Shown here: positions 1,434 through 6,854 of the stretch, in pieces
Position numbering within the stretch: the first letter of the stretch is position 1
Layout: every line of letters starts with the position of its first letter
NCBI GenBank assembly: GCA_014634225.1
Contig: BLFN01000732.1
Span: forward strand, 171,541 to 184,040
Length of the DNA: 12,500 bases
DNA from: Acropora yongei
Taxonomy: Eukaryota > Cnidaria > Anthozoa > Scleractinia > Acroporidae
Direction: 5' to 3'
Program-made: the position numbers and the translations under genes
Notes under the pieces: model-generated
Told to the model about the DNA's origin: nothing
Seen by the model: the letters and a program-made list of their open reading frames with translations, nothing else
Database searches by the model: none

Positions 1434-1514
1434 CTGGTAACTACCACGATTCACTGAGGGACGCAAAGATTGCTGTTGAATTACAGCCTTCCTTTGTCAA
1501 GACAATTGTTCGGG
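1434..1514 (+). CDS. TPR-CHAT gene, internal exon (TPR helix)
   Basis: An acceptor with a strong pyrimidine tract (TCCCCTCCTCTCCCCCAG) precedes the exon, and a good donor (GGTAAGA) follows it. After two bases of a split codon it reads 26 codons: [10 protein letters not shown], then [18 protein letters not shown]. This is the second helix of one TPR (AxxDAxxAVELxP pattern) and the start of the next. It ends with a single G, which exon 2 completes as Gly. The residue before GNY belongs to an exon upstream of the window or not recognised here. Its match in sense and phase with the exon at 4241 is the main reason to believe it. Confidence 0.8.

Positions 1515-6854: not shown

What the first reader, a model, noticed from the sequence alone, without database searches (positions are those of the whole stretch)
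1434..6854. Three hidden TPR exons join in frame to the CHAT exon
Seen: three segments of 81, 68 and 117 nt, each bounded by AG and GT, encode consecutive TPR sequence ([39 protein letters not shown]). Their phases (1, 0, 0) fit together and with the CHAT exon. They are too short for an open-frame search and span 5.4 kb of transposon-filled introns. Known: TPR and CHAT are joined in TTC28-like proteins of corals. Inference: this is one gene, of which the window lacks only the 5' end.
Basis: partly seen in the sequence, partly recalled or inferred. Interest (0 to 1): 0.75.

Follow-up and report, generated by a model that had tools for sequence, protein, structure and literature searches.

The report
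Shortened coral TPR-CHAT gene copy
The three small exons are real parts of a coral TPR-CHAT (TTC28-like) gene copy, but the copy lacks the long repeat section and the first piece of the protease domain that its relatives have between these exons and the CHAT exon, so it is a shortened and possibly broken relative of a large, known coral gene family.

Summary
Observation confirmed. Segments 1434-1514, 4241-4308 and 4770-4886 (+) have the stated borders and phases and join in frame. Oculina patagonica proteins carry the joined peptide. Best matches are 42.4, 44.3 and 42.4 bits; the best of 200 shuffled windows gives 28.5. Exon 4 (5862-6854) holds a near-complete Pfam CHAT domain with both catalytic-type residues and 126 of 127 conserved columns kept.

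In the two full-length relatives found, roughly 470 and 755 residues lie between these parts: a tandem TPR array and three strands plus a helix that begin the separase-like CHAT fold. No trace above shuffle level is in the window. So more than the 5' end is lacking; it looks like a deletion-shortened copy. Whether it is expressed or works is open; exon 1's start phase and intron 2's splice sites are doubtful.

New lead: N-terminal TPR modules of the Oculina relatives keep all five carboxylate-clamp residues in 12 of 13 copies, and the window keeps the two it covers, suggesting docking to Hsp70/Hsp90.

The parts
1434..1514 (+). Exon 1: start of the third TPR motif region of a co-chaperone-like TPR module ([27 protein letters not shown]); carries the two clamp-position residues Lys and Arg (..VKTIVRG..)
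4241..4308 (+). Exon 2: [22 protein letters not shown]
4770..4886 (+). Exon 3: [19 protein letters not shown] and variable linker; if its donor is not used the frame ends ..[11 protein letters not shown] (TAA at 4917-4919)
4887..5861 (+). Putative intron 3 (975 nt), where relatives have roughly 470-755 residues of TPR array and CHAT start; no remnant above shuffle level
   Evidence: donor GTGAGA, acceptor tract 17 of 20 pyrimidines
5862..6854 (+). Exon 4: CHAT domain exon, 330 codons plus TAG; an in-frame TAG directly precedes it
   Evidence: PF12770 1.2e-58, profile 4-289 of 289; start compared; upstream TAG
6414..6416 (+). Catalytic-type His codon (AAHG, exon residue 185)
   Evidence: His in 122 of 123 aligned sequences
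6558..6560 (+). Catalytic-type Cys codon (LSCCHS, second Cys, exon residue 233)
   Evidence: Cys in 120 of 123; aligned to the Cys of 8rot

Best explanation
The locus is a deletion-shortened copy of a coral TPR-CHAT (TTC28-like) gene. Shown: exons 1-3 encode the end of an N-terminal TPR module of Hop/SGTA type, and exon 4 encodes the body of a separase-like CHAT domain, in the order and orientation of the full-length proteins. Shown: the tandem TPR array and the first three strands and helix of the CHAT module are not detectable between them. Inferred: one or more deletions or insertions removed the 5' part of the large TPR-CHAT exon and left a pyrimidine-rich acceptor in front of the rest, so a transcript could splice exon 3 in frame to exon 4. 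Inferred: in full-length relatives the clamp-type TPR module docks a partner (candidate: the C-terminal EEVD tail of Hsp70/Hsp90), the TPR array senses a ligand, and the CHAT body is the effector, as TPR/linker movement controls the CHAT protease in bacterial Craspase. In this copy the sensor is gone and the catalytic fold is incomplete, so it is more likely a weakened or dead copy, or at most a regulator or decoy, than a working protease.
Against: The CHAT exon has no stop or frameshift and deviates at only 1 of 127 conserved columns, rank 99 of 123, which argues for function or a very recent loss; those relatives were picked by similarity, so the test leans towards the window. Phases and a strong acceptor at exon 4 fit a working splice. 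A collapsed assembly could also remove a repeat-rich exon; the window has no N, but reads were not available. The exon structure of the relatives is not known, only their proteins, so 'large TPR-CHAT exon' rests on open reading frames such as P0001 that hold both.
Confidence: 0.62

Rival explanations
1. A functional short-form gene: exon 3 is spliced to exon 4 and the short TPR-CHAT protein has its own role, for instance as a decoy, a regulator or a differently triggered protease.
For: In-frame phases, good exon 3 donor and exon 4 acceptor; intact, conserved CHAT exon; TPR length in coral TPR-CHAT proteins is reported to range from 31 to 3,347 aa in Acropora tenuis (PMC12314368, passages).
Against: The strands and helix that begin the CHAT fold are missing; no short protein with both parts among the 4 matches; exon 1 start phase and intron 2 sites are doubtful.
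Confidence: 0.2
2. Assembly error: the repeat-rich TPR exon is present in the animal but was dropped or collapsed between exon 3 and exon 4.
For: The missing part is a tandem array of very similar repeats in P0126 and P0127, the kind of sequence that assemblies can collapse (general knowledge).
Against: Intron 3 holds 975 nt without similarity to the array, not a seam inside it, and the non-repetitive pre-CHAT segment is missing too.
Confidence: 0.1
3. One reading: an intact TTC28-like gene lacking only its 5' end in the window.
For: Exons, order and phases are real.
Against: Roughly 470-755 residues missing against the two full-length relatives, including part of the CHAT fold.
Confidence: 0.05
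4. Two fragments side by side that are never joined: a TPR fragment (exons 1-3, possibly ending at the stop after exon 3) and a separate 5'-truncated CHAT fragment.
For: Exon 3 read on past its donor meets a stop after ten codons; no homology found in the 975 nt between them.
Against: Same order and strand as in the full-length proteins, and matching phase.
Confidence: 0.03

Closest known systems
Coral/metazoan TPR-CHAT proteins (TTC28-like; Oculina LOC144645277 = P0127, LOC144645270 isoform X2 = P0126)
   Same: N-terminal TPR module, CHAT body, catalytic-type His/Cys, order of parts
   Different: The window lacks the tandem TPR array and the first CHAT strands
Separase protease domain (5fc2, 5fby)
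Bacterial TPR-CHAT of Craspase (Csx29)
   Same: TPR part plus separase-like CHAT with His-Cys pair (PMC9729208, passages)
   Different: No CRISPR context; animal gene with introns; 20% or less identity in the rows
Hop/STIP1 carboxylate-clamp TPR domains
   Same: Clamp residues K5,N9-N6-K2,R6 (PMC2939883, passages) in 12 of 13 Oculina modules; K2 and R6 in the window
   Different: Joined to CHAT; binding to Hsp70/Hsp90 not tested

Membership tests
Metazoan TPR-CHAT (TTC28-like) proteins | Single C-terminal CHAT domain (PF12770) | tested here: met
   E 1.2e-58, profile 4-289 of 289
Metazoan TPR-CHAT (TTC28-like) proteins | Long stretch of multiple TPRs N-terminal to CHAT (as put in PMC12314368, passages) | tested here: not met
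   The 468 and 754 residue middles of P0127/P0126 have no counterpart in the window above shuffle level; filed as a shortened copy derived from the family, not as a canonical member
Metazoan TPR-CHAT (TTC28-like) proteins | Pre-CHAT strands and helix (NTVF..FWV..LR segment); my own criterion from the relatives | tested here: not met
   Kept by score in 93 of 93 relatives with 75 or more residues upstream, out of 122 compared; not found in the window
Metazoan TPR-CHAT (TTC28-like) proteins | Transcript joining TPR and CHAT | not testable with these tools
   no RNA-seq on hand
Clan CD His-Cys protease (separase/CHAT type) | Catalytic His and Cys | tested here: met
   His185 and Cys233 of exon 4 in conserved columns
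Clan CD His-Cys protease (separase/CHAT type) | Separase-like fold | tested here: inconclusive
Clan CD His-Cys protease (separase/CHAT type) | Proteolytic activity | not testable with these tools
   needs a bench assay
Carboxylate-clamp TPR (Hop type) | Five clamp residues K5,N9-N6-K2,R6 | tested here: inconclusive
   K2 and R6 present in the window; motifs 1 and 2 would lie upstream of it; all five present in 12 of 13 Oculina modules

The most novel reading that the evidence does not exclude
Coral TPR-CHAT proteins are separase-like proteases tethered to Hsp70/Hsp90 through an N-terminal carboxylate-clamp TPR module, with the tandem TPR array as sensor. Copies like this one, with clamp and CHAT body joined directly and no sensor, arise by deletion and act as decoys or constitutive partners. 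That would link a hugely expanded coral gene family to the heat-shock machinery.
Probability: 0.15. Interest if true: 0.6.

Novelty: new variant of a known kind. Interest (0 to 1): 0.3.

Why it matters
TPR-CHAT genes number in the hundreds in some coral genomes (276 and 304 in two Acropora; PMC12314368, passages), and in the passages I saw their role in corals is only suggested. Short exons split by kilobase introns are easily missed by open-frame gene finding, so copy counts and architectures may be wrong. This locus shows that both parts of a copy can survive while the sensor array and part of the protease fold are lost. The clamp residues give a direct, testable prediction for the family's partner. 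No paper in the held library holds both 'carboxylate clamp' and 'TTC28'; that is one search of open-licence papers.

Tried and rejected
Chance exons: rejected. Remnants of the TPR array or the pre-CHAT segment: the best hits of 93 relatives' upstream parts are 24.3 bits at 10161-10232; in intron 3 there are two of 23.9 bits, at 4918-5049 (P0078, 30% over 44 columns, against the pre-CHAT segment itself) and 5548-5676 (P0038, 26% over 46, against the part just before it). They lie in the reverse of the order in the relatives, the shuffles reach a median best of 24.6 and 132 of 200 reach the window's best, so I take them as chance. Low-complexity hits of P0092 were dropped for (93 of 94 proteins with 60 or more upstream residues used). 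An alternative exon 1 acceptor with start phase 0 or 2: none open between 1201 and 1436. In-frame exon 3 acceptors also exist at 4779, 4788, 4791 and 4800 but lose conserved residues. Coral DNA in viral contigs: no confirmed relative with two queries. Genome contigs gave two bacterial CHAT loci at 27-30% identity, not pursued. Rfam: no match at gathering scores; tRNA genes: none. Ka/Ks could not be tested, as no DNA of coral relatives was available. The comparison of exons 1-2 with Oculina-invariant columns (24 of 28 kept) and exon 3 (8 of 8) says little, since all 13 modules are of one species.

Full report
What was checked. The window (12,500 nt, no N) was read in full (last 500 bases). The three segments are as described: 81, 68 and 117 nt, AG before and GT after each, phases 1, 0, 0, then exon 4 at 5862-6854 in phase 0; the joined frame is open for 418 codons.

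The segments are real exons. A search with residues 1-88 of the joined peptide found 4 proteins among 78 candidates of about 230-731 aa, and 5 among 89 candidates when longer proteins were allowed, 7 different ones in all. All are Oculina patagonica gene models, 60-67% identical. tblastn of P0121-P0124 hits 1436-1516, 4240-4305 or further, and 4746-4770 onwards, best 42.4, 44.3 and 42.4 bits; the best of 200 dinucleotide shuffles reaches 28.5. Of thirteen modules in these proteins, 13 align without a gap at junction 1-2 and 8 at junction 2-3; three have 1, 2 or 8 extra residues there and two gene models read longer other sequence. Residues before IDKNN in one Oculina model (..LNSKK) align to the window's intron end (..LDEDK), which supports the otherwise poor acceptor of exon 3.

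The CHAT exon. Pfam CHAT 1.2e-58, profile 4-289 of 289. Of 2,679 proteins with E up to 0.001 (7,998 candidates scored, not all), the best 120 were listed, at up to 77% identity. On an alignment of 123 sequences (window, those 120, P0126, P0127) the window differs from the consensus at 1 of 127 columns that are at least 95% conserved, rank 99 of 123 in deviation. The relatives were chosen by similarity, so this leans towards the window. The His and Cys of the clan CD pair are kept. The AlphaFold model (pLDDT 73.8, pTM 0.75) aligns to separase, Craspase TPR-CHAT, gingipain and DdvA.

What is missing. By the alignments, exon 3 ends near residue 336-344 of P0127 and exon 4 starts at 811; in P0126 near 282-291 and at 1044 (starts). 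The slices searched as 'middle' were 468 and 754 residues. They hold the tandem TPRs and a stretch of the type NTVFxA..FWVxQKGKxVxLR..FLxSL. In the window they score at best 23.9 bits, below the best shuffle at 26.9. The upstream parts of 93 relatives score at best 24.3 bits, which 132 of 200 shuffles reach; two 23.9-bit hits in intron 3 are in the wrong order and at shuffle level. Of 122 relatives, 93 have 75 or more residues upstream of the exon-4 start, and all 93 score above every one of 465 shuffled pieces (54 against 52 for the weakest); the 12 weakest were also looked at by eye. One relative, P0080, with 51 residues upstream, jumps from a TPR to the helix before CEDRSL, so similar losses may have happened elsewhere. 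The other relatives start too close to the site to be counted.

Doubts about the joins. Intron 2: donor GTATCC, acceptor tract 7 of 20 pyrimidines. Intron 1: donor GTAAGA, acceptor tract 10 of 20. Intron 3: donor GTGAGA, acceptor tract 17 of 20. Reading through any of the three donors meets a stop within ten codons or so. Exon 1 can only start in phase 1. P0126 is a model that skips the exon before GNYENSL and reads R-G-N where the other modules read L or F before G or E; both letters fit phase 0 or 2, not 1. This is an inference from one predicted isoform, but it may mean a frame break at the 5' side of exon 1. The phase match of exon 3 with exon 4 has a one-in-three chance by itself.

Function, by inference. 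The TPR module belongs with Hop, SGTA and CNS1 domains. The clamp consensus is K5,N9-N6-K2,R6 (PMC2939883, passages); 12 of 13 Oculina modules keep all five and the thirteenth, the exon-skipped one, lacks motifs 1-2. The window keeps K and R of motif 3. Bacterial TPR-CHAT shows that movement of TPR and linker can switch the protease on (PMC9729208, passages). Zebrafish Ttc28 binds Dachsous1b and limits microtubule dynamics (PMC12132318, passages). TTC28-like TPRs also occur fused to TRADD-N domains in animals (PMC8195603, one passage). The coral proteins may work as docked, sensor-controlled proteases; this copy lacks the sensor.

Known context. TPR-CHAT expansion in corals, TPR length variation and kinship to TTC28 are published (PMC12314368 and PMC9145168, passages); a link to apoptosis has been suggested (PMC6208414, passage). 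So the gene kind is known; the shortened architecture with clamp end and incomplete CHAT is a variant. The species is not known; a stony coral is likely from the relatives, but only Oculina is named in the results.

The 'fold' row of the membership test was lowered to inconclusive, because the beginning of the fold is missing.

Noticed in passing
window 9048-10570: Reverse transcriptase ORF (RVT_1 1.6e-29) overlapped from 9971 by a second open frame; looks like a broken LINE-like element downstream of the gene.
   Followed up: partly
window 2631-3022: Inverted repeat, arms of 103 nt at 95%, in intron 1; by eye each arm looks like the head of a tRNA-derived SINE; ARAGORN finds no tRNA.
   Followed up: partly
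window 4935-5230: SINE-like stretch in intron 3, recognised by eye, with a B-box-like GGTTCGGGCCC at 4995-5005 (one mismatch; 2 such matches in the window, 0.35 expected).
   Followed up: partly
window 3144-3404 (+) and 7334-7570 (-): Short ORFs that look by eye like LINE reverse transcriptase pieces; Pfam gives no match at E 0.01.
   Followed up: partly
window 8709-8895: Near-perfect palindrome, arms of 87 nt at 97% with 13 nt between.
   Followed up: no
proteins P0121-P0127: Oculina N-terminal TPR modules, two in most of these proteins, keep the Hsp70/Hsp90 carboxylate-clamp residues in 12 of 13 cases.
   Followed up: partly
protein P0080: Another TPR-CHAT ORF that jumps from a TPR repeat to the helix before CEDRSL without the CHAT strands.
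   Followed up: no
protein P0092: CHAT ORF preceded by a long FIYLSIYL repeat in the same frame.
   Followed up: no
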